A stretch of DNA of 44,700 nt from a virus, in the IMG/VR virus record IMGVR_UViG_3300013100_000005, positions 1 to 44,700 of that record. One strand, written 5' to 3'. Numbering within the stretch: position 1 is the stretch's first letter; the number at the start of each line of letters is the position of its first letter. Positions 7,166 through 27,819 of this stretch are shown here, in pieces. Under the pieces are notes generated by a model that had not been told where the DNA came from, ran no database searches, and saw only the letters and a list, made by a program, of their open reading frames with translations. A program made the position numbers and the translations under genes.

Positions 7166-7405
7166 ATGGCAAAGGTTCAGAACGTGGAACTTTACAATAC
7201 AGTATTGGAACGTTCCGAAAGTTTCGAGATTAACCACGCCGAACGAATTTTAAGAATGCCAAAAAACGGCGGTTGGCAATTACCGGAGGATTCACAATAT
7301 AAATTCGACTTTAACAATGGCATTGGGTATAGAAGTAATAAAAAAGCAGTTATTGGAACCGAAAAAACGGGCAACAATAGCGAAAGCGATTCAGCATCAG
7401 AATAG
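7166..7405 (+). CDS. Small protein with AERILRMP domain, before the portal
   Basis: 79 residues. The core ELYN...HAERILRMP...WQLP...YKFDFNNGI also appears in the lipoprotein gene at 27481-27819 (ELYN, AERLLRMP, W-IP, Y-FNFNTG), so the two share a domain of about 50 residues. The C-terminal 20 residues are Ser/Glu/Asn-rich and probably flexible. It begins three bases after the structural gene and overlaps the portal start by 89 bases. Function unknown; expression with head genes suggests a virion or assembly role. Confidence 0.7.
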   Translation: MAKVQNVELYNTVLERSESFEINHAERILRMPKNGGWQLPEDSQYKFDFNNGIGYRSNKKAVIGTEKTGNNSESDSASE

Positions 7406-9059
7406 AATTAAATTCCATGCTCAAACCAATATTACCCCGGTTATCAACCAACCGTTAACGGACTTTTTAAGTTTCGTTGGTGCCTTAATTCCTAAAGATA
7501 AGTTTAGAATTTTTAAAACACTTTTCCGTTATCCCGTTAAAACCAATGGGATAACGGGAATTTGCTTTGATAAGTTAAGCCGTGTTTTTGATGGTCGTAA
7601 CCCGGCGTTCAATTATCAGTTTATGGATAGTGAGCAAAGGGACGATTGGGAATATTACCGCCAGGATGTTTTGCACGAACCAACCATTTGGCAAACGAAA
7701 GGTTGGGACTTTTTTAAAACCGAGATCAACAGCGTTTTAATTGTTGATTTACCCGCCGAACAAGACCCAACGGATAAGTACCCGCAACCGTATTTCTACT
7801 TTCTTACCATTGACCAGGTGTTGACGTATGAGGTGGATTACAAAACCGGGTACATGAATTGGATTATATTTAGACAACCGGACGGAAAAATTGCCGTGTT
7901 CGATAAAGAACATTTTGAGGTTTACAATTATGACCAATCTAAAAACTCAATTGGTGCGATAATTACAAGTAACGCACATGATTTAGGATATTGCCCGGCT
8001 CGTTTCTTTTGGAATGAGCCTTTGGACATTTTAAACCCCGACGTTAAAGCGCACCCACTAACCAAAGAATTGGAATCAATGGATTGGTTTTTGTTTTTCC
8101 ACGGTTCCAAAAAGGTATTGGATATTTTCGGGGCTTACCCTATTTATTCCGGTTATGCCCAGGATTGCGATTATACCAACGAGGATTCGGGGGATAGTTG
8201 CGACGGTTCCGGTTTCTTGTTGAGCGCACGGGGTACATACAATTTGGATAATGCCGGATTAATTCAGCGTTGCCCACGTTGTTACGATAAACGAATTGCG
8301 GGAGCGGGAACATTTATTGAAATCCCAATTCCTAAAGGCGACCCGAAAGCGGACAACTACCAACCCGATCTTAAAAACCCGGTTCAATTGTTAGGTGTTG
8401 ACGCAACAAGTTTAGCCTATAACGTTACCGAGGAGGAGAGATTGAAAAACAACATTATTACCGGTGTTGTTGGTGTTGAGGGAGAGGGTAACAACGACCA
8501 GGCAATTAACGAAAAGCAAGTTGCTGCCAATTTTGAAAGTCAAAGCGCAATAATTAACCGAGTGAAAAAAGGATTTGAGGCCGCAATACAATTTGTCGAT
8601 CAAACGGCATGCGCATTGCGTTACGGTAAAAGCTTTATTTCTGCAAAGGTTAATTTAGGTACGGAGTTTTTCACATTGAGCGCAACCGATTTAAGAAACC
8701 GTTACAAGGCCGCAAAGGAAAGCGGAGCAAGTGAAGCGGAGTTGGACGCACTACATAACCAAATCATTGAAACCGAATACAGGAACAACCCAACGCAAAT
8801 GCAACGCATGTTTATATTGGCAGAGTTAGAGCCATACAGACACATGACCAGGGACGAAATGTTGGTGTTAAGTGAAAAGGGTATTGTTAGTGCAGAGGAA
8901 TTGCGCATTAAATTAAATTTCCCGACATTCGTTCGACGATTCGAGAGAGAGAATACAAATATTTTAGAGTTCGGGACGCAAATCCCTTTCGATAAAAAAA
9001 TTAACATCATTTTAAATAAATTCAAAGAGTATGGAAGTGAAAACACCACAGGGCAATAA
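7317..9059 (+). CDS. Portal protein
   Basis: 580 residues, the expected length for the dodecameric ring through which DNA enters the head. The calling evidence is position (after terminase, before scaffold and capsid), size, the N-terminal helical region and the long C-terminal helices (EAELDALHNQIIETEYR, LAELEPYRHMTRDEMLVLSE). An internal cysteine cluster is unusual: C284, C295, C319 and C322 with CDGSG and CPRC, like a zinc-binding loop. ATG 7317 overlaps the upstream gene by 89 bases; the next Met is near residue 102 and would delete conserved-looking sequence, so 7317 is preferred. The stop overlaps the next gene by 29 bases. Confidence 0.8.
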   Translation: MALGIEVIKKQLLEPKKRATIAKAIQHQNRIKFHAQTNITPVINQPLTDFLSFVGALIPKDKFRIFKTLFRYPVKTNGITGICFDKLSRVFDGRNPAFNYQFMDSEQRDDWEYYRQDVLHEPTIWQTKGWDFFKTEINSVLIVDLPAEQDPTDKYPQPYFYFLTIDQVLTYEVDYKTGYMNWIIFRQPDGKIAVFDKEHFEVYNYDQSKNSIGAIITSNAHDLGYCPARFFWNEPLDILNPDVKAHPLTKELESMDWFLFFHGSKKVLDIFGAYPIYSGYAQDCDYTNEDSGDSCDGSGFLLSARGTYNLDNAGLIQRCPRCYDKRIAGAGTFIEIPIPKGDPKADNYQPDLKNPVQLLGVDATSLAYNVTEEERLKNNIITGVVGVEGEGNNDQAINEKQVAANFESQSAIINRVKKGFEAAIQFVDQTACALRYGKSFISAKVNLGTEFFTLSATDLRNRYKAAKESGASEAELDALHNQIIETEYRNNPTQMQRMFILAELEPYRHMTRDEMLVLSEKGIVSAEELRIKLNFPTFVRRFERENTNILEFGTQIPFDKKINIILNKFKEYGSENTTGQ

Positions 9060-9624
9060 GGACGTACAGATTACGGACGTAAACGCCGAAAACTACATTG
9101 TACCGAAAGGCGAGGAACATTTGTTTCATGCTATCATTGAGGTAAAAAAGTTTGATGCTAACACCGGTAAACGTCAAAGTGTACCGAGAGTTCAAAAGTT
9201 TGGTAAAAAATCATTCGAGAGCGGAAAGGTTAGAGAAAATTTAGTTCGTCAAGGTTATGACATTATTATTTTGCATGACCCTAACGAATGGTTAAAAACG
9301 CACCAATTGCAATTGGCCGAAAAACAAAAGCAAGACCAGGAACAAGCTTTGGAAAACAAAAGGCAAAAAGAAGAGTTGGCCGCCCAACAATCGGAAGAGG
9401 CGCAACAAAAGAAAATCGACGATGCCGTTGCAAAAGCGTTGGCCGCTCAAAATGCAGCAAACCAACAAGCAATCGACAAAGCAGTTAAAGCAGCGTTGGC
9501 CGCTCAAAAGCCGGCAAAAGTTGAAGAGCCTAAAAGCGAAACCAAAACCAAAGAAAAAACAGTTGACGAAAAAATTTCGGATGCTGCAAAGGGTGGTAAC
9601 GCCGGTGGTACAAGTACCAAATAA
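9031..9624 (+). CDS. Head-assembly protein with coiled coil
   Basis: 197 residues. The N-terminal 90 residues form a compact domain ending YDIIILHDPNEWL. Residues from about 90 to 165 are Gln/Ala/Lys-rich with a heptad-like pattern and an imprecise internal repeat (KALAAQNAANQQAID and KAALAAQKPAK). The tail is Lys/Glu/Thr-rich. It overlaps the portal by 29 bases and precedes the scaffold-like gene. A role in prohead assembly or as a scaffold partner is inferred from place and composition. Confidence 0.6.
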   Translation: MEVKTPQGNKDVQITDVNAENYIVPKGEEHLFHAIIEVKKFDANTGKRQSVPRVQKFGKKSFESGKVRENLVRQGYDIIILHDPNEWLKTHQLQLAEKQKQDQEQALENKRQKEELAAQQSEEAQQKKIDDAVAKALAAQNAANQQAIDKAVKAALAAQKPAKVEEPKSETKTKEKTVDEKISDAAKGGNAGGTSTK

Positions 9625-9666
9625 ATTATTTAATTTTACACAATAAAAATTCAAAGGGTTAGAATT

Positions 9667-10623
9667 ATGGCATTAACTAGAGAAACCATTATTGCAAACG
9701 CAGCGTTAGCAAATTTAACAGACGACCAAATCAAGGCGTTGGAAACATTAAGTACAAATGATGAAAACACCGTTATTGGTAAAAAGACCGGGGAGATTTA
9801 CCGGGAAATGGACACGAAGATTAAAGAGATAACAGGCGTTGAGCGTAACGGGGACGAAAAGACCTATCTTTATTTAGCGAGAGCGGCAACCGGATTAAAA
9901 GACCAGGTTAAAGACTTGGAGGGTTTTAAAACCCAGGTTGACACTTTAACCAAAGAAAAGACCAGGTTAGAAAAAGCGATTAGCGACGGAGCGACCGACG
10001 CAGAAACTAAAAAACAATTAACCCAGGCTAAAGCAGATTTAACCGCAATTACCAATCAGTACAACACATTAAAAACCGAACACGACACCGCAAAAACAAC
10101 GCATGAACAAGCGATTTTTGACGTAACGGTTAAACATGATTTGTCAGCGGCAACGGCGGGAGTTAAATTAAAAGCTGAATTACCTAAAAGCGTTACCGAC
10201 CTTTTGTTAAACCAGGCGTTGGACAAAGTAAAAGCAATGAAACCGGAATACATCGACAACGGCCAGGGAGGTAAGCAACTTGTTTTTAAAGACGAAGCGG
10301 GCGCAATAATGAGAAACCCGGAAAATCAACTTAACCCGTTTACGGCGGCCGACTTAGTACAAAAAGAGTTAAAAGCACTTGGAGTATTAGACGAGGGACG
10401 TAAAGCGGCGGGAGGTGGAACCGGCGGAGAGGGCGGACAAGGTGGACAAGGCGGAGGCGGAACCGTTATTGATGTTAAGTCGGCTAAAACACGTGTTGAA
10501 GCAAACGAAGCTATTGGAGCCACTTTAATGGCGCAAGGGTTAACGGTTGGTTCGGACGCATACGACGCAGCAATGACGCAAGCGTGGAGAGACAACAACG
10601 TTGCCGTATTACCGGAACAATAA
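9667..10623 (+). CDS. Probable capsid scaffolding protein
   Basis: 318 residues. Residues about 70-150 are a long charged coiled coil rich in Lys, Thr and Asp (LKDQVKDLEGFKTQVDTLTK), followed by a small globular part and a Gly-rich linker near residues 245-270 (GGGTGGEGGQGGQGGGG). It lies immediately before the major capsid gene, where siphoviruses encode scaffolds. Scaffold proteins shape the prohead and then leave. No protease motif was seen. Confidence 0.7.
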   Translation: MALTRETIIANAALANLTDDQIKALETLSTNDENTVIGKKTGEIYREMDTKIKEITGVERNGDEKTYLYLARAATGLKDQVKDLEGFKTQVDTLTKEKTRLEKAISDGATDAETKKQLTQAKADLTAITNQYNTLKTEHDTAKTTHEQAIFDVTVKHDLSAATAGVKLKAELPKSVTDLLLNQALDKVKAMKPEYIDNGQGGKQLVFKDEAGAIMRNPENQLNPFTAADLVQKELKALGVLDEGRKAAGGGTGGEGGQGGQGGGGTVIDVKSAKTRVEANEAIGATLMAQGLTVGSDAYDAAMTQAWRDNNVAVLPEQ

Positions 10624-10643
10624 CAAAACAAAAAACAATCAAC

Positions 10644-10662
10644 GGGCAATGGGTTAGCCTTA
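10644..10662 (+). promoter_or_regulatory. Leader element GGGCAATGGGTTAGCC, copy 3
   Basis: Same stem and AATGGGTTA loop as the copy at 6452-6470 (C instead of T in the loop there), about 30 bases before the major capsid start. No TAnnTTTG box lies just upstream, so the element acts within a longer transcript or marks a processed end. Confidence 0.5.
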
Positions 10663-10691
10663 TCAAAAACAATTAATTAATATTTAAAAAC

Positions 10692-11807
10692 ATGAGTTTA
10701 ATAGCAACAAGGGTACAAAATTGGCGAGTAGCAAACCCGGCTTTTGACAAGAACATGACCCGCCCGCAAGAATATGGGGCGTTAGATTTCTTTATTCAGC
10801 AAACCAACGCCGCAAACAGTATTTTAAGCCCGGAGTTAAGGGATAGGGCTTTGCGCTCAATCGGTAACACTTTACAAATTCCGGTTATCAATTTCGACGA
10901 AGCCGTGCAAGTGGCCAACGTTCGTTCATGCGTTATTGCAGATAACGAAAATACATCGGCGTTATACACCGTGGTTTTCGCAACGTTCTCAATCGGTTTT
11001 ACGATGGTGCCGGCTGCATACATGAATAACGAAATTTCTTACAACCACGATTGGACACGTAAGATTGAAAAGGTAACACGTGCATTGGCTAATGCTTTAG
11101 ACATTGGTGCGGTTACTGCATTAGAGGCAAACAAAACCCAGGTGTTTAAAGATTTGCTTTATTATACCGCCGTTGGTAACGACGTGCAAGTGCCGTGGGA
11201 TTTAAGAGAGGTTGTGTTGTCGGATGCTAACACAATGATGCGTGCAAACGAATATCCAGGTTTATTACACGTTATCGGTAATGCCGGTATTGATTCAATG
11301 ATTCGCCAATTAGCGAAACACGGAATTTACAACGACGTAAACAACCGCATGGAGTTTGAAAACAAAGTTATCCACTACACCAACAACATCGTAAACGAGG
11401 CGGGTAAATTCGCAACGGCATTTGTTGTTGAGGATGGTAACGTTGGTATGTTAACCCGTGTTGATCGTGAAGCGGTACGCCGTGCAAAAGCAAACGACCA
11501 CGAATGGGATATTGTGCGTTTACCTTACATTGACTTACCGGTTGGTTCACACTTTTACACGTCGGTTGGCGATCAATCGGCAATTGCGGGTGCAGCAACG
11601 GCCGATCTTACATGTGCGGTAAAAGAACATTTTGGATTTTCGGTTGATGTTGCATTTATTGTTGCTTACAACAGTAACCCGGCAACAATTGCCAATCCAA
11701 TTATGAAATTGGAAATTGCGCAATCAACGGCAGCAAATCCGGTTGCTCGTCCGGTAACAATTGTTAACGGAGAGGATAACCCGGTTTACACGTCGGCGGT
11801 TGTTTAA
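10692..11807 (+). CDS. Major capsid protein
   Basis: 371 residues, typical for an HK97-fold capsid subunit. The call rests on position after the scaffold-like gene, size, low charge, and a dedicated leader element and terminator that favour high expression. The N-terminal region (IATRVQNWRVANPAFDKNMT) and the central helix (IEKVTRALANALDIGAVTAL) fit an N-arm and spine helix. No signature motif proves it. Codon use is that of a highly expressed gene, with many GCA, AAC and GGT. A strong terminator follows at 11831-11863. Confidence 0.8.
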   Translation: MSLIATRVQNWRVANPAFDKNMTRPQEYGALDFFIQQTNAANSILSPELRDRALRSIGNTLQIPVINFDEAVQVANVRSCVIADNENTSALYTVVFATFSIGFTMVPAAYMNNEISYNHDWTRKIEKVTRALANALDIGAVTALEANKTQVFKDLLYYTAVGNDVQVPWDLREVVLSDANTMMRANEYPGLLHVIGNAGIDSMIRQLAKHGIYNDVNNRMEFENKVIHYTNNIVNEAGKFATAFVVEDGNVGMLTRVDREAVRRAKANDHEWDIVRLPYIDLPVGSHFYTSVGDQSAIAGAATADLTCAVKEHFGFSVDVAFIVAYNSNPATIANPIMKLEIAQSTAANPVARPVTIVNGEDNPVYTSAVV

Positions 11808-11830
11808 TCGAAAAGTTCACTAACAAATTA

Positions 11831-11863
11831 AAGGGGCGGGTAAAATACCCCGTCCCTTTTTTT
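11831..11863 (+). terminator. Strong terminator after the capsid gene
   Basis: A 12-pair stem (AAGGGGCGGGTA with TACCCCGTCCCTT, one bulged C and one G-U) with a three-base loop is followed by seven T. It probably lowers expression of the downstream connector and tail genes relative to capsid. Confidence 0.9.
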
Positions 11864-11877
11864 CATTTATACCCACT

Positions 11878-13179
11878 ATGTACAGGATTAAAGAGATACA
11901 AGAAAAATTATTGCATTTGGTTGGTTGGGAACAATCATATAATCCGGCAAACGCAATTGACGAGGCAATGACCGAAACGGAAACCGGTTTGTTTTTCCAG
12001 GGAGCGCACCCGCTTTTAACTTTGGATAACGTGGCCGCAATTATGCCGGACGATTGGGGTTACCAATACCCGGATTGGGATTTAACAAAAGAGTACAAAG
12101 CAGGGGATAAAGCGAAATTTGGAAATACTATTTGGATTGCGAAAGTTGACAACCTAAACCAACAACCGTCCGAAAACATTTATTGGAAAACCTACAACAT
12201 GTTATCCGACTTTTTGGAGAAATTAACCAGGGACGGAATAGTTAAGGCAATCCAAACTTTTATCCAGGCAAAAAGGCTAAACGAGGAAACAAAGAATTTA
12301 TTGGAAAACGTAACATTCTTTGACGGTGCCGGTCGATTGGCCGCAACTATTAGCAACATGGAAAAATTGGTTGGCTTTGAAATTACCAACGTTCGTTCTA
12401 TGGGTGTAACTTCAAAGATCGAACGAATAGGTTTGCAGATGACCGGGGCAACCGGAATTGTTAAGGTGTATTTATTTCATAGTTCCCGGGTTGAGCCAAT
12501 CCAAACATTCGATTTGGATTTTACAGTTGAAAACGGCGGGTTCCAATGGTTTGATGTAAAGGATTGTTATTTGCCTAATATTGGAAGTAAAACCAATGCC
12601 GGCGGTTCGTGGTACTTAACATATAACCAAAATGATTTGCCGGCCGGTATGCAAGCGGTAAACGTGACAAAGGATTGGAGCGTTGAGCCATGCGGAACAT
12701 GCGGAATTAATAACATTGAGAATTGGCGCAACATAATGAAGTATTTGGAGGTTTCCCCGTTTATGATGCAAGCCCCAACAACATTTGAATCGATACCCGA
12801 AATGTGGGACGTTGAACGAATGATTTACACTACAACTCAAAACTATGGTATGAACGTTGAAATTTCCGTTGGTTGCGATCTAACGGATTTTATAATTTCT
12901 CAACGATCGATATTCCAAACGGTAATTCAAAGACAAGTGGCCGCAAATGCTTTGCGCACTATGGCAATGAACCCGGACGTTAAGGTTAACCGAAATCAAT
13001 CGAACGTTTCAAAAATGGATATTCTTTATGAGTTAGACGGGAACACGTCGGGCGTTCGTCCCAACGGTTTGGGTTATGACCTTAAAAAAGCATTCGACGC
13101 ATTAAGTTTAGATACAAAAGGAATTGACCGGGTTTGTTTGGGTTGCAATAACGGCGGGGTTAAGTATAGATCAATTTAA
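11878..13179 (+). CDS. Structural protein with carbohydrate-binding-like module (connector region)
   Basis: 433 residues. Residues 67-107 (WDLTKEYKAGDKAKFGNTIW, then QQPSENIYW) match the aromatic pattern of small chitin-binding type modules: Y-x-x-GD-x-x-x-x-G-x-x-W and a closing P-x-x-x-x-x-W. The middle part (about 160-270) is beta-rich, suggesting a second sandwich. The C-terminal part resembles a structural core. It lies right after the capsid terminator, where neck or connector genes occur. Its exact place in the particle is uncertain. Confidence 0.55.
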   Translation: MYRIKEIQEKLLHLVGWEQSYNPANAIDEAMTETETGLFFQGAHPLLTLDNVAAIMPDDWGYQYPDWDLTKEYKAGDKAKFGNTIWIAKVDNLNQQPSENIYWKTYNMLSDFLEKLTRDGIVKAIQTFIQAKRLNEETKNLLENVTFFDGAGRLAATISNMEKLVGFEITNVRSMGVTSKIERIGLQMTGATGIVKVYLFHSSRVEPIQTFDLDFTVENGGFQWFDVKDCYLPNIGSKTNAGGSWYLTYNQNDLPAGMQAVNVTKDWSVEPCGTCGINNIENWRNIMKYLEVSPFMMQAPTTFESIPEMWDVERMIYTTTQNYGMNVEISVGCDLTDFIISQRSIFQTVIQRQVAANALRTMAMNPDVKVNRNQSNVSKMDILYELDGNTSGVRPNGLGYDLKKAFDALSLDTKGIDRVCLGCNNGGVKYRSI

Positions 13180-13182
13180 GCT

Positions 13183-13644
13183 ATGCGAATAATCAACGAT
13201 TTGCGCAAACGAGTAAAGGAGTTCGACGAGGGTTTAAAGTCCGGGCTATTCATTTCCGAAATTATATTGGAAAACGAGGCGTTCATTGTTAACATGAATA
13301 GCGAGTTGCAATTGTATGACCAGGGGGTTAACGCTTTGGGTGTTAGTATTTCGGATTACAAACCGTATGCAGAATATACGATTGAAATTAAAAAGGCTAA
13401 AAACCAACCATACGACCGGGTAACGCTGCATGACGATGGGGATTTTGCCGGCTCATTCTTTTTACAAGTAGGAACCGAAAATTTTGAGATCAAAGCCGGG
13501 GATTTCAAAACAGTTGATCTAATGAAAAAATACGGTCGCCAAATATTGGGTTTAACCAACGAAAACTTAACCCAATTAATTTGGCAGTATATTTACCCCG
13601 ATTTAAAAACAACAACAAGAAAATACATTTATGGCAAATCCTAA
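13183..13644 (+). CDS. Neck/head-completion-like protein
   Basis: 153 residues, family not recognised. An N-terminal helix (LRKRVKEFDEGLKSGLF) is followed by a beta-rich domain (SISDYKPYAEYTIEIKKAK). It starts three bases after the previous stop and overlaps the next gene by 14 bases. Position between capsid and tape measure and small size suggest a head-tail joining component. Confidence 0.55.
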   Translation: MRIINDLRKRVKEFDEGLKSGLFISEIILENEAFIVNMNSELQLYDQGVNALGVSISDYKPYAEYTIEIKKAKNQPYDRVTLHDDGDFAGSFFLQVGTENFEIKAGDFKTVDLMKKYGRQILGLTNENLTQLIWQYIYPDLKTTTRKYIYGKS

Positions 13645-14206
13645 AGCACCCGTTATTGATAACCCACAATTAATTGATATTGTATTGGGAGAAATGCAAA
13701 CCGGATTGGTTAGCAATTTGGGTTGGTTGGATATGGCGTTTGGCCGTGCGCAAAGGTTGGTTAAAACCATTGAAACCAAAAAATACTTTACCCCAAACGT
13801 TTACACCGGTAAAGGGAACGAATATATTGGAGTTGCCCCGGATTCAAAGATTGGCAACTTTTCATTCTTTTGGTTAGATGACCCGCAAACAATGAATTGG
13901 TTGCCAGGTCAGCAAGGCGACATTAAAACAAATTTCTCTTTGATCTTTTGGTTTGACCTTAGAAGAGTTTACAACGAAGCCAACAACCGCAATACAGAGT
14001 TATTAAAAGCAAATATTTTAAGAACTTTAAACGGAGGTTTCCCAATGAGGAGCGGCCGAATTAAAATCAACCGGATTTATGAGCAAGCCGAAAACATTTA
14101 CAGAGGCTTTACTTTGGACGAGGTGGATAATCAATTTTTAATGCACCCGTTCGCCGGCTTTAGGTTCGAGGGCGAATTGACAATTATAGAACCGTGTTTG
14201 ATTTAG
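13631..14206 (+). CDS. Head-tail joining or tail terminator candidate
   Basis: 191 residues, not recognised. Mixed alpha/beta with long beta-rich stretches (FSLIFWFDLRRVYNEANNRN, GFRFEGELTIIEPCLI). The start overlaps the upstream stop by 14 bases, implying translational coupling. Tail terminator proteins of siphoviruses sit at this place and have this size, but no motif proves it. Confidence 0.5.
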   Translation: MANPKAPVIDNPQLIDIVLGEMQTGLVSNLGWLDMAFGRAQRLVKTIETKKYFTPNVYTGKGNEYIGVAPDSKIGNFSFFWLDDPQTMNWLPGQQGDIKTNFSLIFWFDLRRVYNEANNRNTELLKANILRTLNGGFPMRSGRIKINRIYEQAENIYRGFTLDEVDNQFLMHPFAGFRFEGELTIIEPCLI

Positions 14207-14208
14207 AT

Positions 14209-15230: not shown

Positions 15231-15328
15231 AGCGATTTAAGACACTTATCGTTTCGGACGACCAAATGGATGTAAAAAGAATATAAATTGATTACGCAAT
15301 AAAAAGCGTTTGAATTAACACTAATAAA
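15231..15328. other. Gap before the tape measure gene
   Basis: 98 bases without a gene in the annotated frames. The -1 frame of the preceding gene stays open for 20 codons here. No promoter box or terminator is seen. Confidence 0.5.
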
Positions 15329-19141: not shown

Positions 19142-19144
19142 AAG

Positions 19145-21649
19145 ATGAACCCGAAATACAGATTTTTTATTTATCTAAATGATGACGACGATAACAAAAG
19201 GGTTGTCAATCCAAATTATAAATCGGACTTATCAAAAGATTACGATTTAGAAAACAATCAAAAGTTTTACCGGACTAAATTATCCGGTAAAATTTCTTTT
19301 TTAAGAGACGATTACGATTACATAATGGCTCAACCATTTGAAACGCAATACAACATTTTAATTGAGAGATCGGACGATTGGGGTTTAACATGGGGTTATG
19401 AATTTTTAGGTAAGTTTTTCAAAACGGATTGCAACGTTGAGGAGGACGATAAAAAATTAATTGTTCAACCCGACCCCGTGGATGATTACACCGAGGTATT
19501 GGCCGGATTAGATAAAGAATATAATTTAATTACTTTGGCACCGGTTATTGATCCTTTGATTGTTCAGAAACGCCCATTGATACAGGTTTATATACCGGGC
19601 GACAATGTTGTTTCTTGCTTTTTGGGCGGTAATTCATGGGAGCAAGACGCAAACGCAACCACCGACGAAATGGCATTGGTTGATAATTTCCATTTCGCTT
19701 TATGTAATTTATTAAAAGAAATTAATTTAACAATCAACGGCACACCGGTTGCGGCAACGGGATTATATACCGGTCGCATGAGTATAAGCACGGACGGTAC
19801 TTTAATGACGGGACAGTTAAGAACAAGTAACCCCGATTATTATTTGGAGGTAACCCAGGTTAAAAGCGGGTTGTCTTGGATAACATTTGGTTCTTTCTTT
19901 TGTAATTTGCGTAGAACGTCCGACAATGTTTCGTTGTTCGCTTTTTCTACATCAACACCAGGTTCTTTTGATGACTTCGATTTTACAATGACGGCGGAAA
20001 ATGGAGCGACCGGAACGGCTTTGTGTGAAATGAAAACATACAGGATTTACGCACGTTATTTATTGGATGTTGAAACAATCCAGGGTTTAAATACTTATCC
20101 ATTGCCGGGAGACGATATTGTTGGGTATAATCGTAATTACCACCGTGCAATTGGTTATGCAATCGACGTTGCTTTTATATCTCAAAACTTTTCATTGGAG
20201 CCAACCGAATGGGGGCGGGCGGATAACCTACGTTACTACTTACCGCCGTATTCAATATTTGGACAAGCTTTTTACCCAATAGCCCGATCAACGTGGCGTT
20301 ATGCCTCTTTATGGTTTAGCTTTGATCTATTCGATAATTTTATTGAGGTTGACGGCCGAAAGCGTTATTTGTTGCGGGACACTTATCCGATTTATTCGGT
20401 TATCAATATATTATTAAAACAGTTTTCCCCAAACATTACCCATGAAGAAACGGAGGCATGCAGCCAATTTTTATATGCATCGCAAAACCCGATCACTTAC
20501 CAAAAGTTTAAATTATCAATAACGCCAAAAAGCAATGTGTTAACCGGTGCGTACACTCAACCGGCACAAAAGGCACCGGCGACATTAGGGCAAGTATTAA
20601 ACATGTTGCGGGACACTTACCGTTGTTATTGGCATTTAGAAAATGGAAAACTAAGAATCGAACATGTTAGTTGGTACGAAAACGGCGGTTCTTATTCCGG
20701 CGGCGACGTTGTGGGTATTGATTTAACAACAATGATTAATATTCGTAATGGCAAAAGTTGGGCGTTCAATTCGTCGGCTTATTCGTGGGATAAAGTAGAT
20801 ATGCCGGAACGTTACCAATTTGGTTGGATGGACGACGTAACATTGGCGTTCGAGGGGTTACCAATACAGGTTGTTAGTAAATACGTTACGCCCGGTAAAA
20901 TCGAAGAAATTAACGTTTCAATGTTTACATCAGACGTTGACATGATGTTGTTAAACCCGGACGATATGAGTAAAGACGGTTTCGCACTATTCGCAAGCGT
21001 TAACACAAACGCATTGGTTGAGCCGGACACGGGGTTTAGTGGTAGTTCGGGTAACAATGGAATTACAACACCAAAATATGCCTTAAAATCAGAGGTTTTG
21101 GGAATGGATGCGGTGGCCAGGTTCAACGCTTATTCAGAATTAGGTACAAATGTTAGGTTGGCTTTTTTTGATGGAAGCAATAACGAAATATATAGCATTG
21201 TTCTTGGTTTCGTTATAGGTAGTCAAGATTTTGTTGAACCGGTAACAATACCGTTAAATGCCGCAACGGTTGCTTTTGGTGTAGATGGAATTGGAGATTT
21301 TAGGTTTTATCAATTGAGCGTTGCCGAATTGCAGGAATTGCCATTTGTTGAGCGGGATATTAACGGCGTAACCTACTTTTTGCAAAACGGTTATTTGGCT
21401 TTTGTAACACTTCAACCTAATTATTACATATATGATTTACCGTCGTACAATGTTTTGATAAATGGAACCAATGCGTTTGTTGCCGGCATCCAAAAAAAGA
21501 AAAAACAAAACGTTGTTTTCCCGTTGAGAGGTTCGCCAAACATGACGGAATTAGTTAAAACTAATATTGGCAACGGAACAATTGACAAAATGAGCGTAAA
21601 TTTACACAGTCGAATGACGAAAACAACATTGAAGTATGACACAGAATAA
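19145..21649 (+). CDS. Large tail tip protein (distal tail or tail-associated)
   Basis: 834 residues, starting three bases after the tape measure. The N-terminus (about 1-130) is acidic and Tyr-rich (LNDDDDNKRVVNPNYKSDLS), the middle has repeated beta-rich blocks, and there is no coiled coil. Distal tail or tail-hub proteins directly follow the tape measure in siphoviruses. No specific fold can be named from sequence. Its stop overlaps the next gene by 14 bases. Confidence 0.6.
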   Translation: MNPKYRFFIYLNDDDDNKRVVNPNYKSDLSKDYDLENNQKFYRTKLSGKISFLRDDYDYIMAQPFETQYNILIERSDDWGLTWGYEFLGKFFKTDCNVEEDDKKLIVQPDPVDDYTEVLAGLDKEYNLITLAPVIDPLIVQKRPLIQVYIPGDNVVSCFLGGNSWEQDANATTDEMALVDNFHFALCNLLKEINLTINGTPVAATGLYTGRMSISTDGTLMTGQLRTSNPDYYLEVTQVKSGLSWITFGSFFCNLRRTSDNVSLFAFSTSTPGSFDDFDFTMTAENGATGTALCEMKTYRIYARYLLDVETIQGLNTYPLPGDDIVGYNRNYHRAIGYAIDVAFISQNFSLEPTEWGRADNLRYYLPPYSIFGQAFYPIARSTWRYASLWFSFDLFDNFIEVDGRKRYLLRDTYPIYSVINILLKQFSPNITHEETEACSQFLYASQNPITYQKFKLSITPKSNVLTGAYTQPAQKAPATLGQVLNMLRDTYRCYWHLENGKLRIEHVSWYENGGSYSGGDVVGIDLTTMINIRNGKSWAFNSSAYSWDKVDMPERYQFGWMDDVTLAFEGLPIQVVSKYVTPGKIEEINVSMFTSDVDMMLLNPDDMSKDGFALFASVNTNALVEPDTGFSGSSGNNGITTPKYALKSEVLGMDAVARFNAYSELGTNVRLAFFDGSNNEIYSIVLGFVIGSQDFVEPVTIPLNAATVAFGVDGIGDFRFYQLSVAELQELPFVERDINGVTYFLQNGYLAFVTLQPNYYIYDLPSYNVLINGTNAFVAGIQKKKKQNVVFPLRGSPNMTELVKTNIGNGTIDKMSVNLHSRMTKTTLKYDTE

Positions 21650-22520
21650 CAACTTTAGCGTATTGCCTTTTTACAGTTCGATTGAGGAGCAAAACCACCG
21701 TAAAAGTTATGCTTACGGGAACATTTACCCGCTATTCACTCCAAAGGATAGATTGTTGCCGTTTCAGATAATAACCGATTCCGTATTTGTCGGGGATGTT
21801 GCAGTTACTTTGCAAATAACATCAGCTATGCTTTATAAAAAAACGGGGGAATTTGTGGCGGACATTACCCAGGGTATTAACGAAACCGGATTAGAGGTTG
21901 CAAGCTTTCCAACGTTTGGTTATGATATTATAGTTTATCCGGGGAACTTTCCGTTACCAATAGTTATGTTGCCAGGAATGTATTATATTGTTTTATCGGA
22001 CGGAACCCGAAATTGGTATTCGGATATTTTCACGATGGTTAACGAAATAGGGGGATATTTAAAAATTGAATGGTACGACGTTGAAAACCTTGTTTTTGAT
22101 GCCGGCCAAATAGTTTATAAAAACCCAGGTTTCCGAAATATTCTATATTTGCTAACTGAATTGGGAAAACCGGAATACGTGTTTGAAGAGGAGGGAGAAA
22201 ACAGAGACGGATATTTTTTTGCAGAAAAACAGATTTCAGAAAAGACTTATAAGTTTACGGCATTAGCCCCCGAATACCTTTGTGACGTAATGCGATTTAT
22301 CAGAATGAGTGATTATGTTTTGATTACCGATAAGTACGGGCGGAAGTATGATTGTGATACTTTTTTAATTACCCCTAAATGGGAGACGCAAGGCGACATT
22401 GCAAGCGTTGAATGTGAATTTCAAACGGCGACGGTCGTTAAGAAAATAGGCCAGGGCGCAACGATTATAACCGGCGGAGACTTTAACAATGATTTTAACA
22501 ATGACTTTAACAATCAATAG
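21636..22520 (+). CDS. Tail tip protein with C-terminal DFNN repeats
   Basis: 294 residues. Beta-rich, with the N-terminal half alternating aromatic and Gly/Pro positions. The C-terminus carries three tandem copies of a four-residue unit (DFNN), coded by a 12-base tandem repeat at about 22479-22517 (GACTTTAACAAT and variants). The gene overlaps the previous one by 14 bases and lies three bases before the esterase-bearing tail protein, so a tail hub or baseplate-like role is inferred. Confidence 0.55.
   Translation: MTQNNNFSVLPFYSSIEEQNHRKSYAYGNIYPLFTPKDRLLPFQIITDSVFVGDVAVTLQITSAMLYKKTGEFVADITQGINETGLEVASFPTFGYDIIVYPGNFPLPIVMLPGMYYIVLSDGTRNWYSDIFTMVNEIGGYLKIEWYDVENLVFDAGQIVYKNPGFRNILYLLTELGKPEYVFEEEGENRDGYFFAEKQISEKTYKFTALAPEYLCDVMRFIRMSDYVLITDKYGRKYDCDTFLITPKWETQGDIASVECEFQTATVVKKIGQGATIITGGDFNNDFNNDFNNQ
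22479..22517 (+). repeat. Tandem 12-base repeat at the 3' end of the tail gene
   Basis: Three copies of GACTTTAACAAT or a one-base variant code for DFNN units. Copy number could vary by slippage. Confidence 0.8.
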
Positions 22521-22523
22521 AAA

Positions 22524-24629
22524 ATGGCAAACAATCAAATTTTAAAAGATGCCATTGCGGCCGTAATAAAAGAGAACGGCAACAATGAGATTACCGGGGA
22601 AATAATGCAACAAGCATTAAACAGTATAATAAACCAATTTGGCGTTGGTTCGTTGTTTCTTGGTTTAGCAAATCCAACAACAAACCCAGGCACTCCCGAT
22701 CAAAGAGTTTTTTATATAGCTGCACAACCAGGGGTTTACGCAAACTTTGGAGGGTATGAGTTGACGGGTACAAAATTAATAGTGCTTGATAATAAAACAG
22801 GCGTTTTTGTTGCTACTGTTATCATAGATTTATCTAAATATTTTTACCCGGATTACTTAAAAGATAATTCTTTGACTTATACGGGGCCGGAAAAAACAAT
22901 ATTAAATGCAATAAAGGTTTTGGATTTTGAGCCGGTAGCGGATGAACAAAGCCATGATTGGATAGTTTTATTAGTTAAAGCCAACCCGGCAAACATTATA
23001 ATAAGGAATTTAACGGCGGCCGCAAATTGGGAATTGGTGTTGGAAGAGGAAAGTTTTACAGATGAAAGCGGAGTTAAATATTATAACGGACAAATAGAAT
23101 ACCCTTATGCGGATGCGGTTTTTAAGTATAATATTGGCGTTGATTGGTCGAAGTTGCCAAACGATTTTTCGTTTGACAATAATGCAACTAATTTACATGT
23201 AAAACCGGGAGGGTTTAGCCAGGGTTTAGCAATATTAAATGGCATTGAAAAAAGCAGCTTACCAAAATATTTATTAGATGATGACTTTTTATATTCACGT
23301 GTAGTTAGAAAAGTTATTTCAGCAATACCGGTTTTCGACATAGTAGTGCCGAATATTTATAAAAATGATGATTGGCGTTTGCATTATGTTGCCACGGACA
23401 ACCCAACAGCGCCTTTAAATGCTAGTTACAAATTTAGTATAGAGATTAGAAACCTAACAACAAGCAAAGCGTATATAATTGTTCAGTATAACCAACCGGA
23501 ATTGGTTTTGGCTCAACTACAAGGCTTAAAAACTTATGAGGGTAGGTTTTGGAGTTCAGACGGTACGCATTACATTGATTATAATATTCGTATTGATTGG
23601 GCTTTGTTAGGCGCAAACTTTCAATATGCGCCGCTTGCGCCGTCTGAAATAAAATTGAAGATCGGAGACAATAACATTACAAGCGGAATAAAACCAGGTT
23701 TTTACGGTAGTCCTTTAAGATACCCGGTTTCTTTTTTAAGTGGTAGAACCGCCGTAATGTATGGAACATCAATTTGGGCTTTGTCTTATGATATGCCGGC
23801 GGCAATAATTAAGAACGGAGGTAATTATAAAAACGAAGCAATATCAAGCGGATGTTATAGGAGCGGAGTTTCAACAGCTACACCCGAAACCAAAATTCCG
23901 TGGCCAACTATGTTAAGGGCTTTGGGAGATACAGTTGCGGATAAAGTTTATATTCTTGCAAATTGGGATAGCGTTTACAGAAACCTAGCATCTTTAAACC
24001 CTCCAAACCGTGCTTATTTCGACGGACAACATGAGGTAGAGGCTATACAAAGAGGTATTACAGATGCGGAGTTTTACATTAGTTGCAGCTATGAGCGTAG
24101 AATATTGCCATACTTAGACGGAACAAAGCCAATGCCGGACGTTTGGTATTTTGGCGCACCATATAATGACGCAAAGCCTTGGTTAACTTACGAGACGCCG
24201 GAACAATTTATTGAACAGCCGGTAAATCCAGTTGATAAAAACACATTCATGGGGGCTATGAATTTTTATATTGGCTTAATTTTGCAGTATAATCCGTACG
24301 CCCGAATTGCTTTAGTAGGTCATTACGAAAACCAATTAGTACCGAGAATTTCGCAAGGTCAAATTGCTTTGGCAAATCATTGGCAAATACCATTATTAAA
24401 AACATGGGAGTTAACGGGTTTTTCACAAAACAGAATACCAGGCACGCAGCACTTAAACGTTGATGACCCAGGGCGTGCAGCGTATGCGGGTGTTGATGGA
24501 ACCGACCCAACAAAGGATATTACATGTTTGCAATGGTGGATTCCCGACAACATACACCCGGCCACATCCGCCCAGGCTCAAAACCTTTTATTAGATATAC
24601 AAGCAAATTGGATTAGTAAAACATATTAA
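22524..24629 (+). CDS. Tail protein with SGNH esterase domain (host-surface enzyme)
   Basis: 701 residues. The N-terminal 70 residues look like a virion attachment part, followed by two similar beta-rich segments (about 110-250 and 255-400). From about 400 an SGNH/GDSL hydrolase is visible: block I VMYGTSIW with Ser416, block III FGAPYND with Asn548, and block V PDNIHP with Asp675 and His678. These give the Ser-His-Asp triad and the oxyanion Asn. Such phage domains remove acetyl or similar groups from surface glycans during adsorption. This is probably the receptor-binding or depolymerising tail protein; the substrate is unknown. A terminator follows. Confidence 0.8.
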   Translation: MANNQILKDAIAAVIKENGNNEITGEIMQQALNSIINQFGVGSLFLGLANPTTNPGTPDQRVFYIAAQPGVYANFGGYELTGTKLIVLDNKTGVFVATVIIDLSKYFYPDYLKDNSLTYTGPEKTILNAIKVLDFEPVADEQSHDWIVLLVKANPANIIIRNLTAAANWELVLEEESFTDESGVKYYNGQIEYPYADAVFKYNIGVDWSKLPNDFSFDNNATNLHVKPGGFSQGLAILNGIEKSSLPKYLLDDDFLYSRVVRKVISAIPVFDIVVPNIYKNDDWRLHYVATDNPTAPLNASYKFSIEIRNLTTSKAYIIVQYNQPELVLAQLQGLKTYEGRFWSSDGTHYIDYNIRIDWALLGANFQYAPLAPSEIKLKIGDNNITSGIKPGFYGSPLRYPVSFLSGRTAVMYGTSIWALSYDMPAAIIKNGGNYKNEAISSGCYRSGVSTATPETKIPWPTMLRALGDTVADKVYILANWDSVYRNLASLNPPNRAYFDGQHEVEAIQRGITDAEFYISCSYERRILPYLDGTKPMPDVWYFGAPYNDAKPWLTYETPEQFIEQPVNPVDKNTFMGAMNFYIGLILQYNPYARIALVGHYENQLVPRISQGQIALANHWQIPLLKTWELTGFSQNRIPGTQHLNVDDPGRAAYAGVDGTDPTKDITCLQWWIPDNIHPATSAQAQNLLLDIQANWISKTY

Positions 24630-24636
24630 ACAAAGC

Positions 24637-24664
24637 AGGGTTCTAAAACAGAACCCTCTTTTTG
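24637..24664 (+). terminator. Terminator of the virion operon
   Basis: AGGGTTCT at 24637-24644 pairs with AGAACCCT at 24650-24657 across a five-base loop, then CTTTTTG. It separates virion from lysis genes. Confidence 0.9.
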
Positions 24665-24686
24665 TTCGATGTATTTTATAAATTTG
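24662..24686 (+). promoter_or_regulatory. Possible promoter of the lysis genes
   Basis: TAAATTTG at 24679-24686 is a perfect -7 box. The nearest TTG (24662-24664) is only 14 bases upstream, shorter than the usual 17-20, so strength is uncertain. The expected start is near 24692, about 15 bases before the ATG at 24707. Confidence 0.5.
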
Positions 24687-24706
24687 TATGACTATAAAAC
24701 AAAGCA

Positions 24707-25024
24707 ATGGCAATAGAGTTACCAAATAGTGAGCAAGTAGAGTTGGCGGACAAGAAAGGGGGAACCCCTTACATGTTGGTTGTGGCCGTAATTTTGTTGG
24801 GTATAATGACAACGATGTATTTTACATCAAATAAAACCAACCGGGGGGACAATTTAGCCGCAATTAAAAATTGTACCGACGAAAACCGGGAACTAAAAAC
24901 AGAGAACAAACAGTTGCGAGCCGAATTATTAGCAACAATTAGGGGTGCAGCATTAGACAAACAGGAACTTAAAAAGAATACGGATAGTGTTATCCGGGAG
25001 GCAGCAAAAAAACATATCAAATAA
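24707..25024 (+). CDS. Membrane-anchored coiled-coil protein (spanin-like candidate)
   Basis: 105 residues. A 22-residue N-terminal tail is followed by one membrane span (PYMLVVAVILLGIMTTMYF, about 22-40) and a charged coiled coil (KNCTDENRELKTENKQLRAE) to the end. This N-in, single-span, helical-ectodomain plan is that of inner-membrane spanins of Gram-negative phages. It starts the lysis operon, with the endolysin two genes on. No adjacent lipoprotein was found, so the spanin assignment is tentative; a holin role is also possible. Confidence 0.55.
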   Translation: MAIELPNSEQVELADKKGGTPYMLVVAVILLGIMTTMYFTSNKTNRGDNLAAIKNCTDENRELKTENKQLRAELLATIRGAALDKQELKKNTDSVIREAAKKHIK

Positions 25025-25032
25025 TTAAGGTT

Positions 25033-25863
25033 ATGAAAATCGAGGATAAAACAACAACTAAAAAAACAAATTATCAACCGTACATAATAGCCGGGTTAGT
25101 GGTATTATTAGCGTGCGCCGTTACATGGGCAATCCGTGAACGAGGGGCAAAGGAAATTGCCAAAACCATTTCGGAACCTAGCAAAGTTTTAAAAGACCCA
25201 ACCGCCCCGTCCGTCGATCAATTTATTGATTCGTTAAAACAAAACCACAATACTTTCGATAACACTAAAAATGTTGTTGGAGGAAAAGAAGTTGCGGTAA
25301 GTAAAACACTTGTTGATACCATTGCCAGGTTGAGCGGAATTAAACCCGATCAAATAACCGATTGGAAACAAATAGCAACGCAAACCGAGGGACGGGCATT
25401 AAAAGCGGAAAGGATGGTGGACAGCTTGCAGCGAGAAACTTTTTTTTACAAAGACAAGTATTTGCAATTAGCCTTTCGCAGAGGTAACCCGGCCGACACA
25501 ACAGACAAAGGAACGTTTGATTTTAAATACGATGCGGATTTAAACGTTACTCAATACACAACCAGGGGTAAAATATTAGGATTGCCAATTGGGGCAAAAA
25601 AAAGCTATACCGATATTTATTCGAGTGACCCCAGGACAACAATAAAAGGATTAAAGACATTTACGGTTGAGCAAAAGCAACCGCATTACGGTTTTAGATT
25701 ACAATTAGTAACCAATTATTCTTTTCGTAGAAATGCTTTACAATTTGGATTGGGTGCGCAAGTTGATATAAATAGATTTAGCATTGTGGGAACTCAATAT
25801 TACAATCCGGTTGAAAATAATTTTAGCCCCAACATTGGAGCCAGGTTTGATTTAATTAGATAA
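25033..25863 (+). CDS. Membrane-anchored protein with beta-rich C-terminus
   Basis: 276 residues. N-terminal span YIIAGLVVLLACAVTWAI (about 17-34), a helical stretch (35-150), then a beta-rich C-terminal part from about 165 with alternating residues, ending NIGARFDLIR. That end resembles outer-membrane strands but lacks the terminal Phe. It lies between the coiled-coil membrane protein and the endolysin (2-8 base gaps). A cell-envelope role in lysis is inferred. Bridging both membranes is a speculative but testable idea. No family recognised with confidence. Confidence 0.55.
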   Translation: MKIEDKTTTKKTNYQPYIIAGLVVLLACAVTWAIRERGAKEIAKTISEPSKVLKDPTAPSVDQFIDSLKQNHNTFDNTKNVVGGKEVAVSKTLVDTIARLSGIKPDQITDWKQIATQTEGRALKAERMVDSLQRETFFYKDKYLQLAFRRGNPADTTDKGTFDFKYDADLNVTQYTTRGKILGLPIGAKKSYTDIYSSDPRTTIKGLKTFTVEQKQPHYGFRLQLVTNYSFRRNALQFGLGAQVDINRFSIVGTQYYNPVENNFSPNIGARFDLIR

Positions 25864-25865
25864 TT

Positions 25866-26552
25866 ATGAATAAGAATTTAAAAAGCGTTTTACCATTCGC
25901 AAAAAAGTACATTGGTAGCCCGTATGTTTTCGGGGTTGTGGTTCCAAAAAAAGATCCTAACTATAAAGGGGCTTTTGATTGTGCCGAATATGTGGCATAC
26001 GTTATTGCCCAGGTTTTGGAATTGATGGATTACGGGGTAAGATCGGGCGACGCTTATACCGGATTTTTCCAGGCCGACGCAAAATCGAAAGGCGTTATAA
26101 TTACACCAAAAGAGGCCGCAAGTATTCCGGGCGCAATTCTTTTAAGATTCCCGGCACCGGGTGCAATTGGTCACATTGCATTTTCACAGGGAACCGGAAA
26201 AACCGTTGAAGCTTACAACACTAAAAAAGGAGTTATTGAAAGCGTTGTTGATGGGAGGCGTTGGGACATTGGGGTTTTATTGCCAGGTTTTGAATACGAT
26301 GTTTTAAAAGAAGTTAAAACGGCGGCACCGGCGATTGTTTACAGGATTAAAACCCCAATGATGAAAGCCCCGTTTATTCAAACGGTACAAGACCGTTTAA
26401 AAAAGTTGGCATACTACAATGAGCCAAAAACAGATCAATATTTTGGAAACAATATGTTGGCAGCTTTGGTAAAGTTCCAAAAGGATAAAGGGTTGATTGT
26501 CGACGGTGAAATTATGCCAGGGGGAGAAACCGCCAAAGCATTGGGAATTTAA
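25866..26552 (+). CDS. Endolysin: NlpC/P60-type peptidase with peptidoglycan-binding domain
   Basis: 228 residues. The catalytic domain (about 1-150) has Cys39 in AFDCAEYVAYV and His103 in GAIGHIAFSQG, the classic Cys-His layout of NlpC/P60 or CHAP amidases/endopeptidases. The C-terminal 70 residues (FIQTVQDRLKKLAYYNEPKT, ALVKFQKDKGL, GGETAKALGI) form a peptidoglycan-binding type 1 repeat. No signal peptide, so release needs a holin. It is the last gene of the lysis set and is followed by a terminator. Confidence 0.85.
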   Translation: MNKNLKSVLPFAKKYIGSPYVFGVVVPKKDPNYKGAFDCAEYVAYVIAQVLELMDYGVRSGDAYTGFFQADAKSKGVIITPKEAASIPGAILLRFPAPGAIGHIAFSQGTGKTVEAYNTKKGVIESVVDGRRWDIGVLLPGFEYDVLKEVKTAAPAIVYRIKTPMMKAPFIQTVQDRLKKLAYYNEPKTDQYFGNNMLAALVKFQKDKGLIVDGEIMPGGETAKALGI

Positions 26553-26572
26553 TATTGAATAACAGAATTTAT

Positions 26573-26603
26573 AAGGGGTAAGGCTAAACGTTTTGCCCCT
26601 TTT
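26573..26603 (+). terminator. Terminator after the endolysin
   Basis: AAGGGG at 26573-26578 pairs with CCCCTT at 26596-26601, followed by TTTT. The long loop makes it weaker than the others. Confidence 0.65.
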
Positions 26604-26767
26604 GCATTTAGCTAAAATAAAGCCCGTAAACGAATTAAAATGTTTGAACGATAAAAGTATTGCGGAAATATAGAAAAACGCTTAAATCGAATATTTAATA
26701 AAAATAAGTTTCTTTGGAACCAAAAGATTTGTTTTTTACAATATTTTAATAAATAAAAGAAAATTCT
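26604..26767. other. AT-rich intergenic region
   Basis: About 160 AT-rich bases without a supported gene. It holds a dyad TTTGG-AA-CCAAA at about 26714-26725 and runs into the promoter at 26768. Minus-strand frames here look like chance AT-rich translation. An origin or regulatory region is possible, but no iterons are seen. Confidence 0.5.
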
Positions 26768-26798
26768 TTTGGTAATACAAAAAACATTATTACATTTG
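26768..26798 (+). promoter_or_regulatory. Bacteroidota-type promoter P26798
   Basis: TTTG at 26768-26771, a 19-base spacer and TACATTTG at 26791-26798. The box lies in CTTTTGGTAA, a near copy of the dyad of the accessory promoters. Confidence 0.85.
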
Positions 26799-26814
26799 CT
26801 ATACCAAAACACGA

Positions 26815-26830
26815 CGGGGCGTTTTCCCCG
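26815..26830 (+). promoter_or_regulatory. Leader hairpin, copy 2 (CGGGG-CGTTTT-CCCCG)
   Basis: A perfect five-pair stem with the CGTTTT loop, about 17 bases after the -7 box and 21 bases before the ATG at 26852. Confidence 0.85.
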
Positions 26831-26851
26831 GATTAAATCATTGCCTTTAAC

Positions 26852-27103
26852 ATGATAGACAACACTTATACCGGCCTTAATTATTCAACAAAAGAGATTA
26901 ACCGGGCATTCAAAATTTGGGTTTATGGATTTGGAGAGGATGGAAATAAAATTGACACCCTTGTTGGCGTTTCCGGTTTAATTAAATTAATTGGCGTTGA
27001 CTTAGCGAATACTTTTATTGATCGTGCATTTAATACAATCAATGATGATAAATGTATTTGCAAATTACGCCGTGGCATTAAAATTACATTTTACAATCAC
27101 TAA
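26852..27103 (+). CDS. Hypothetical protein, first gene of the lipoprotein operon
   Basis: 83 residues, not recognised. Starts 21 bases after the leader hairpin. Helical C-terminal half, with CICKLRRG near its end. First of five genes that end at the terminator at 28447-28478. Confidence 0.7.
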   Translation: MIDNTYTGLNYSTKEINRAFKIWVYGFGEDGNKIDTLVGVSGLIKLIGVDLANTFIDRAFNTINDDKCICKLRRGIKITFYNH

Positions 27104-27107
27104 AAAC

Positions 27108-27479
27108 ATGAATGAGAAAAACCAGGAATTTCTAAAAGTAGTTAAGCAACTACAGGAACAAAAAAAGCATTACGAATTAAGATTGTCGGCCGTTGCCGAT
27201 AGAAAATTTTATGTGTTTGTTGTAAATGAGGTTTACGCATTAAAAAACGTAAAAGGAAAAACGAAACTTTGCCGTCCGTTGGAAGCGTCATTGTTTACAA
27301 AAAATGTTGCCGACGAAATTATGAGCAATGCAAAGTTCAACGACAAGAACGGACAACCGTTTATTCCGACCGGCGCAACATTGGCCGAAACTTATTTTTC
27401 GGGACTTATTGAAGAGGTAACGGAAACAATAAGAATTTTTGAACAATCAATTGAAACTTTAGAAAGTGAGGGTAAATAA
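27108..27479 (+). CDS. Hypothetical helical protein
   Basis: 123 residues from ATG 27108; a longer frame from 27018 would overlap the previous gene by 86 bases. The N-terminus (KNQEFLKVVKQLQEQKKHYE) and the C-terminus (EEVTETIRIFEQSIETLESE) are helical, possibly coiled. No family recognised. It is followed one base later by the lipoprotein gene. Confidence 0.65.
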   Translation: MNEKNQEFLKVVKQLQEQKKHYELRLSAVADRKFYVFVVNEVYALKNVKGKTKLCRPLEASLFTKNVADEIMSNAKFNDKNGQPFIPTGATLAETYFSGLIEEVTETIRIFEQSIETLESEGK

Positions 27480-27480
27480 A

Positions 27481-27819
27481 ATGAGAAAATTAATTTTTAT
27501 GATTGTGGCAACGGCGTTGTTCACTTCATGCGAAAAAAAGGAAATCGAATTGTTGGAGCCAACAAAAACAGAGCAAGCGGCACCGGGTAATGAGCCGAAC
27601 GAAAGCAACAACTTTAATAACAACAAATATTGGTTGCTTTATAAAACCGGTAAATACGAATTGTATAACCGTGTAACAAAAACAGTTGGTCAATACATTA
27701 TTGACGATGCGGAAAGGTTGTTGCGTATGCCGGCGACACAGTGGGAAATCCCGGCCGGTGCGCCGTATGTTTTCAATTTCAATACCGGTTTAAAGTTTGA
27801 TAAAAAATTAATAAAGTAG
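27481..27819 (+). CDS. Lipoprotein carrying the AERLLRMP domain
   Basis: 112 residues. A short basic and hydrophobic signal (MRKLIFMIVATALFTSC) ends in a lipobox with Cys17, followed by EKKE. That resembles the charged lipoprotein export signals of Bacteroidota, so surface display is plausible. An Asn/Glu/Pro-rich linker (about 22-48) leads to a domain shared with the protein at 7166-7405: YELYNRV, DAERLLRMP, W-IP, Y-FNFNTG. An envelope lipoprotein expressed from an accessory promoter could act in superinfection exclusion or in lysis; neither is shown. ATG 27481 is chosen because it gives a complete signal peptide. Confidence 0.75.
   Translation: MRKLIFMIVATALFTSCEKKEIELLEPTKTEQAAPGNEPNESNNFNNNKYWLLYKTGKYELYNRVTKTVGQYIIDDAERLLRMPATQWEIPAGAPYVFNFNTGLKFDKKLIK

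What the first reader, a model, noticed from the sequence alone, without database searches (positions are those of the whole stretch)
7166..27819. A virion-block protein and a lipoprotein share a domain
The 79-residue protein before the portal and the lipoprotein at 27481-27819 share ELYN, AER(I/L)LRMP, W-(L/I)P and Y-F-FN-G in the same order over about 50 residues. One is cytosolic and made with head genes; the other has a signal peptide, Cys17 lipobox and a flexible linker. Duplication of a virion-linked domain into a host-envelope lipoprotein suggests that the lipoprotein mimics or binds a phage component, for example to block superinfection.
Basis: partly seen in the sequence, partly recalled or inferred. 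Interest (0 to 1): 0.6.

Follow-up and report, generated by a model that had tools for sequence, protein, structure and literature searches.

The report
Phage assembly-block domain copied into lipoprotein
A phage of Bacteroidota bacteria carries two copies of a small protein domain, one in a conserved gene wedged between its tail-tube and portal genes and one fused behind a lipoprotein signal for the host envelope; the shared ancestry is solid, but what the envelope copy does (blocking competing phages is one good guess) is not known.

Summary
The 79-residue protein (p79, 7166-7405) and the lipoprotein (27481-27819) share about 55 residues at 38% identity: blastp E 3e-10, and E 5e-10 with a profile built only from other phages' p79s. 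Both are predicted to fold the same way.

p79 is a conserved gene missing from Pfam, PHROGs and NCBIfam. In all 80 viral loci inspected it lies beside MP2 and portal homologues, and its end overlaps the portal start in 90 of 93 loci measured. "MP2" is a solved tail tube protein, so p79 sits between tube and portal genes.

The lipoprotein is so far unique. 85 related phage records carry p79 but no such lipoprotein, and none turned up in viral, genome or plasmid searches. The best tree makes it a fast-evolving sister of the window's own p79, though alternatives are not rejected. It sits behind a terminator and a Bacteroidota-type promoter, outside the late operon.

No p79 chain appears in the PDB, which holds capsid, portal, tube, terminator and tail chains of a relative; the lipoprotein lacks p79's most conserved loop and histidine, and the published surface-export motif. 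Best guess: a periplasm-facing paralogue, perhaps for superinfection exclusion.

The parts
6509..7162 (+). 'MP2': tail tube protein, 217 aa (annotated major head protein in PHROGs)
   Evidence: phmmer E 4e-107 to PDB 9wwa_N/9wwb 'tube protein'; PHROG 8193
7166..7405 (+). p79, 79 aa, conserved uncatalogued small protein between tube and portal genes
   Evidence: homologues beside MP2 and portal in all 80 viral loci inspected and in named phages; no Pfam, PHROG or NCBIfam family; AlphaFold model
7317..9059 (+). portal protein; its first 89 nt overlap the end of p79 in another frame
   Evidence: PHROG 7376 E 4e-185, PDB 9wwa_A; overlap of 38-122 nt in 90 of 93 loci
26573..26601 (+). terminator-like hairpin that closes the lysis/late block
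   Evidence: 12-pair stem and T-rich tail
26768..26798 (+). Bacteroidota-type promoter match TTTG-N19-TACATTTG
   Evidence: pattern scan; six plus-strand matches in the window, 0.56 expected in mononucleotide shuffles
26852..27103 (+). first gene of the lipoprotein's transcription unit, 83 aa, PHROG 32997
27108..27479 (+). upstream neighbour, 123 aa, related to the C-terminal part of a TCUEAP2 protein
   Evidence: 31% over 116 aa
27481..27531 (+). lipoprotein signal peptide and lipobox ALFTSC, Cys17
   Evidence: sequence; lipobox scan; weak Pfam LPAM_1 hit, E 0.12
27532..27636 (+). linker, residues 18-52, largely low confidence in the model
   Evidence: pLDDT about 46-59 over residues 1-50; short helix predicted at 46-56
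27637..27819 (+). p79-like domain of the lipoprotein, residues 53-112 and stop
27824..28216 (+). downstream neighbour, 130 aa, no relatives found

Best explanation
The lipoprotein is a lineage-specific paralogue of p79. The ordered p79 domain was copied, lost its charged, portal-overlapping tail, and was joined to a lipoprotein signal and linker. The homology is shown; the direction of copying is inferred. Also inferred: it is made from its own promoter before or apart from the late genes, is lipidated, and holds the domain in the periplasm on a flexible tether. There it most likely acts on envelope or phage components during infection, and the likeliest single role is superinfection exclusion: hindering DNA entry of a second related phage by binding the tail- or portal-side partner that p79 binds in the cytosol. 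Homology is about 97% sure; the exclusion role only about one in three, and that is the confidence given.
For: Homology and shared predicted fold. p79 is fixed next to MP2 (tube) and portal across viral loci, named phages and beside a divergent MP2 (28%) in a bacterial genome, so it probably works with tube or portal. The lipoprotein is absent from 85 related records; tree and branch lengths (0 for p79, 1.52 for the lipoprotein) favour duplication followed by fast change. It lies behind its own terminator-promoter boundary. Phage lipoproteins that block DNA injection through a tethered domain are known: Ltp of TP-J34 (PMC3952083).
Against: No evidence that p79 is in virions or that its partner is exposed during entry; no p79 chain in the PDB. 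The lipoprotein has lost His24 and the N34-G35-G36 loop, so it may not bind the same partner. The residues after the cysteine, EKKEI, do not match the published surface-export motifs (PMC5080379), so a surface role is unlikely and a periplasmic one is only inferred. AU tests leave the exact origin open. Early expression rests on a promoter pattern alone.
Confidence: 0.35

Rival explanations
1. Scaffold reuse: the p79 fold was recruited only as a stable small domain and now binds a host envelope target, with no link to p79's partner.
For: Long lipoprotein branch (1.52 against 0); loss of His24 and of the conserved loop while core residues stay; no related lipoprotein elsewhere.
Against: A-E-R, W and P, conserved in p79, are kept as well; if any generic domain would do, use of the phage's own assembly-block domain needs no special reason but is a coincidence.
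Confidence: 0.35
2. Lysis factor: the lipoprotein serves as outer-membrane spanin partner; it is the only convincing plus-strand lipoprotein that the scan found in the genome.
For: The scan found no other plus-strand lipoprotein; genes with membrane anchor and coiled coil lie at 24707-25863, before the amidase-like gene.
Against: Separated from the lysis genes by a terminator, a promoter and two genes; carries a folded domain; the relatives' lipoproteins are not homologous.
Confidence: 0.08
3. The lipoprotein domain came from another phage's p79 by recombination, not from this phage's own copy (a rival on origin, compatible with either function).
For: AU tests do not reject grouping with TCUEAP2, PD691P4 or other p79s (p 0.33-0.36); codon identity is at the level expected from usage alone (11 of 23, 11.5 expected).
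Against: Best tree joins it with the window's p79 (99/83); ELYN is shared only with it, and FxFNxG with it and TCUEAP2.
Confidence: 0.15
4. The open frame is a decaying or unexpressed remnant.
For: Only one example is known.
Against: Intact signal, lipobox and domain; in-frame codon score 0.375 against at most -0.25 for out-of-frame stretches; starts one base after the stop of the gene before it.
Confidence: 0.04

Closest known systems
Ltp superinfection-exclusion lipoprotein of Streptococcus thermophilus phage TP-J34
   Same: Phage-encoded lipoprotein with lipid anchor, spacer and a small folded domain (PMC3952083)
   Different: Ltp's active part is a repeat domain that targets the tape measure protein; here it is a strand-strand-helix-strand-strand domain related to the phage's own p79, in a Gram-negative-type host, with no tested activity
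p79-like proteins of B40-8, B124-14, PDS1 and TCUEAP2 type phages (uncatalogued)
   Same: Same domain, profile E 5e-10
   Different: p79 has no signal peptide, lies between tube and portal genes, keeps His24, the NGG loop and a charged tail
T5 Llp lipoprotein (from own knowledge)
   Same: Phage-made envelope lipoprotein that acts against superinfection
   Different: Llp masks the receptor FhuA; no sequence comparison was made here

Membership tests
p79 family (defined here) | Matches a profile of p79 proteins that excludes both window sequences | tested here: met
   p79 E 2e-29, lipoprotein E 5e-10
p79 family (defined here) | Gene between tube and portal genes | tested here: not met
   Met by p79, not by the lipoprotein at 27481: the lipoprotein is a paralogue, not an orthologue
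p79 family (defined here) | Conserved His24 and N34-G35-G36 | tested here: not met
   Asp76, Thr86, gap and Gln87 in the lipoprotein
Bacterial lipoproteins | Type II signal with n-region, h-region and lipobox cysteine | tested here: met
   MRKLIFMIVATALFTSC; Pfam LPAM_1 hit is below its cut-off
Surface-exposed Bacteroidota lipoproteins | Export signal C-X-K-(D/E)2-X, or SDDDD / SDDFE type | tested here: not met
   Sequence after Cys is EKKEI; motifs from PMC5080379; host unknown, so this is weak
Ltp-type exclusion lipoproteins | Lipid anchor, spacer, tethered domain | tested here: met
   Sequence and model; lipidation itself not tested
Ltp-type exclusion lipoproteins | Ltp repeat domain | tested here: inconclusive
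   No Pfam domain hit, but no direct comparison with Ltp was made
Ltp-type exclusion lipoproteins | Blocks DNA entry, binds the tape measure protein | not testable with these tools
   Needs infection and binding assays
Two-component spanins (o-spanin) | Lipoprotein gene next to or inside an i-spanin gene in the lysis cassette | tested here: not met
   Two genes, a promoter and a terminator lie between

The most novel reading that the evidence does not exclude
A phage has turned its own morphogenesis protein into an envelope-anchored decoy: the duplicated domain, held in the periplasm, binds the tail or portal component of incoming sister phages and blocks DNA entry, a self-derived form of superinfection exclusion.
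Probability: 0.2. Interest if true: 0.7.

Novelty: new variant of a known kind. Interest (0 to 1): 0.4.

Why it matters
It brings to light a conserved small gene between the tail-tube and portal genes of a widespread group of Bacteroidota phages, left out of several published annotations and of the family libraries, and offers a natural experiment on its role: one phage exported a copy to the envelope. If the copy blocks infection, phages can make exclusion factors out of their own assembly proteins, and the lipoprotein would be a handle on p79's binding partner.

Tried and rejected
Second copies elsewhere: scanned 85 related records. Record G009 has MP2-p79-portal twice, which looks like assembly chimerism, not a lipoprotein; G033's weak hit (E 0.002) is in an unrelated 192-aa protein. 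Lipoprotein relatives by exact peptides, by alignment and by a degenerate DNA pattern for [DN]AERxLRMP: none (the two pattern matches read are unrelated frames). Cellular origin: 395 Bacteroidota genomes gave p79 only on a phage contig, plus three marginal hits, one of them a divergent p79 beside an MP2 homologue. Readthrough or frameshift from MP2 into p79: rejected, the spacing falls in all three frames. Known fold: no convincing match in the PDB; the three strongest viral matches are 38-51% identical, so probably p79s themselves. Synteny anchors: neither neighbour of the lipoprotein gave relatives in viral contigs. Defence families: no hit.

Full report
Setting. The window is a 44.7-kb virus record with a 123-base repeat at its ends, that is, a complete or nearly complete phage genome. 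Its portal is 75% identical to Elizabethkingia phage TCUEAP2 and 65-68% to phages BKO1-3, AS73P1, C1_85S2P and PDS1, with B40-8 and B124-14 further off.

The observation. p79 (7166-7405) and the lipoprotein (27481-27819) share 55 residues at 38% identity. The score of 103 stands about 17 standard deviations above shuffles, and blastp against all ORFs of the window gives E 3e-10. A profile from 61 p79 homologues, both window sequences left out, still finds the lipoprotein at E 5e-10, with the next ORF at 1.5. AlphaFold gives the same order of elements for both; the lipoprotein was modelled on an alignment of p79s, so this is agreement, not independent proof. The alignment runs from the start of p79 to about residue 60 and leaves out its charged tail.

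What p79 is. Homologues occur in about 43 of the 75 phage records whose portal matches and in 128 viral contig stretches. All 80 loci inspected also hold MP2 and portal homologues. In 90 of 93 loci measured the p79 ORF overlaps the portal start by 38-122 nt, and in 90 of 93 the portal begins with ATG; translational coupling is the likely reading (inference). The MP2 gene before it is a tail tube: it matches PDB 9wwa/9wwb 'tube protein' at E 4e-107, and PDS1's protein differs from that chain at about 5 of 216 residues. Portal, capsid, terminator and tail proteins match entries 9wwa, 9ww9 and 9wwc, yet neither the p79 profile nor PDS1's own p79 matches any PDB chain. The models may be partial, so this lowers, but does not exclude, a virion role. 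p79 is unannotated in TCUEAP2, PDS1, B124-14 and Fpv5 and absent from Pfam, PHROGs and NCBIfam. Divergent forms exist in Flavobacterium phages Fpv5 (E 9e-10) and 1/32 (E 2e-6), again between the MP2-like and portal genes.

The lipoprotein. MRKLIFMIVATALFTSC is a typical lipoprotein signal; a 35-residue polar linker follows, then the domain. The residues after the cysteine (EKKEI) do not match the export signals C-X-K-(D/E)2-X, SDDDD or SDDFE that carry Bacteroidota lipoproteins to the surface (PMC5080379), so a periplasm-facing position is more likely; the host is unknown, so this is weak. A terminator-like hairpin ends the lysis block at 26601 and a Bacteroidota-type promoter match lies at 26768, so the lipoprotein belongs to a separate transcription unit; that it is early is inferred. 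Relative to TCUEAP2, the lipoprotein and the next gene are inserted between two shared genes. Codon usage is that of a real gene.

Origin. Whole-record scans of 85 relatives found a single p79 each, apart from one chimera-like record and one unrelated weak match. No lipoprotein relative was found in viral contigs, bacterial genome contigs or plasmids; the viral and genome scans reach close relatives best, so distant ones may be missed. About 394 further Bacteroidota genomes hold no cellular version. The best tree joins lipoprotein and window p79 (99/83), with branch 1.52 for the lipoprotein and 0 for p79. AU tests do not reject other placements, and shared residues use the same codon no more often than chance (11 of 23), so the copy is old or comes from a close relative.

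Function. The lipoprotein keeps A25-E26-R27, L29, M31, W37 and P40 but has lost His24 and N34-G35-G36, which are conserved in 87-100% of p79s. This can be read as loss of p79's partner or as retuning. Exclusion of related phages is the likeliest single role because phage lipoproteins with a tethered domain do this (Ltp, PMC3952083) and p79's partner is probably a tube or portal protein, but scaffold reuse with a host target is about as likely. A lysis role is disfavoured by gene position.

Verdict. Observation confirmed, duplication well supported, virion-component premise not supported, superinfection role open.

Noticed in passing
window 6509-7162: The protein annotated as major head protein or MP2 across this phage group is the tail tube protein by match to PDB 9wwa/9wwb.
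   Followed up: yes
window 7317-7405: p79 and portal ORFs overlap by 38-122 nt, always in the same relative frame, in 90 of 93 loci: probable translational coupling.
   Followed up: partly
L007 3761-3979; L008 25833-26051; L013 31249-31515; L135 1667-1846: p79 is a conserved gene missing from the annotation of TCUEAP2, PDS1, B124-14 and Fpv5.
   Followed up: yes
L104, L105 (IMGVR_UViG_3300020045_008030): The record carries MP2-p79-portal twice and a terminase fragment on the other strand, as from mixed assembly of two related phages.
   Followed up: partly
window 2307, 26768, 28586, 40257: Bacteroidota-type promoter matches (TTTGG...TATATTTG or TACATTTG) at likely starts of transcription units; 0.56 plus-strand matches expected by chance against six found.
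   Followed up: partly
L139 441-1662: A bacterial genome holds a divergent tube gene (28% to MP2) followed by a divergent p79, probably a prophage.
   Followed up: partly
L008 19751-20047 and L009 40429-40725: PDS1 and BKO1-3 encode an identical small lipoprotein unrelated to the one studied.
   Followed up: no
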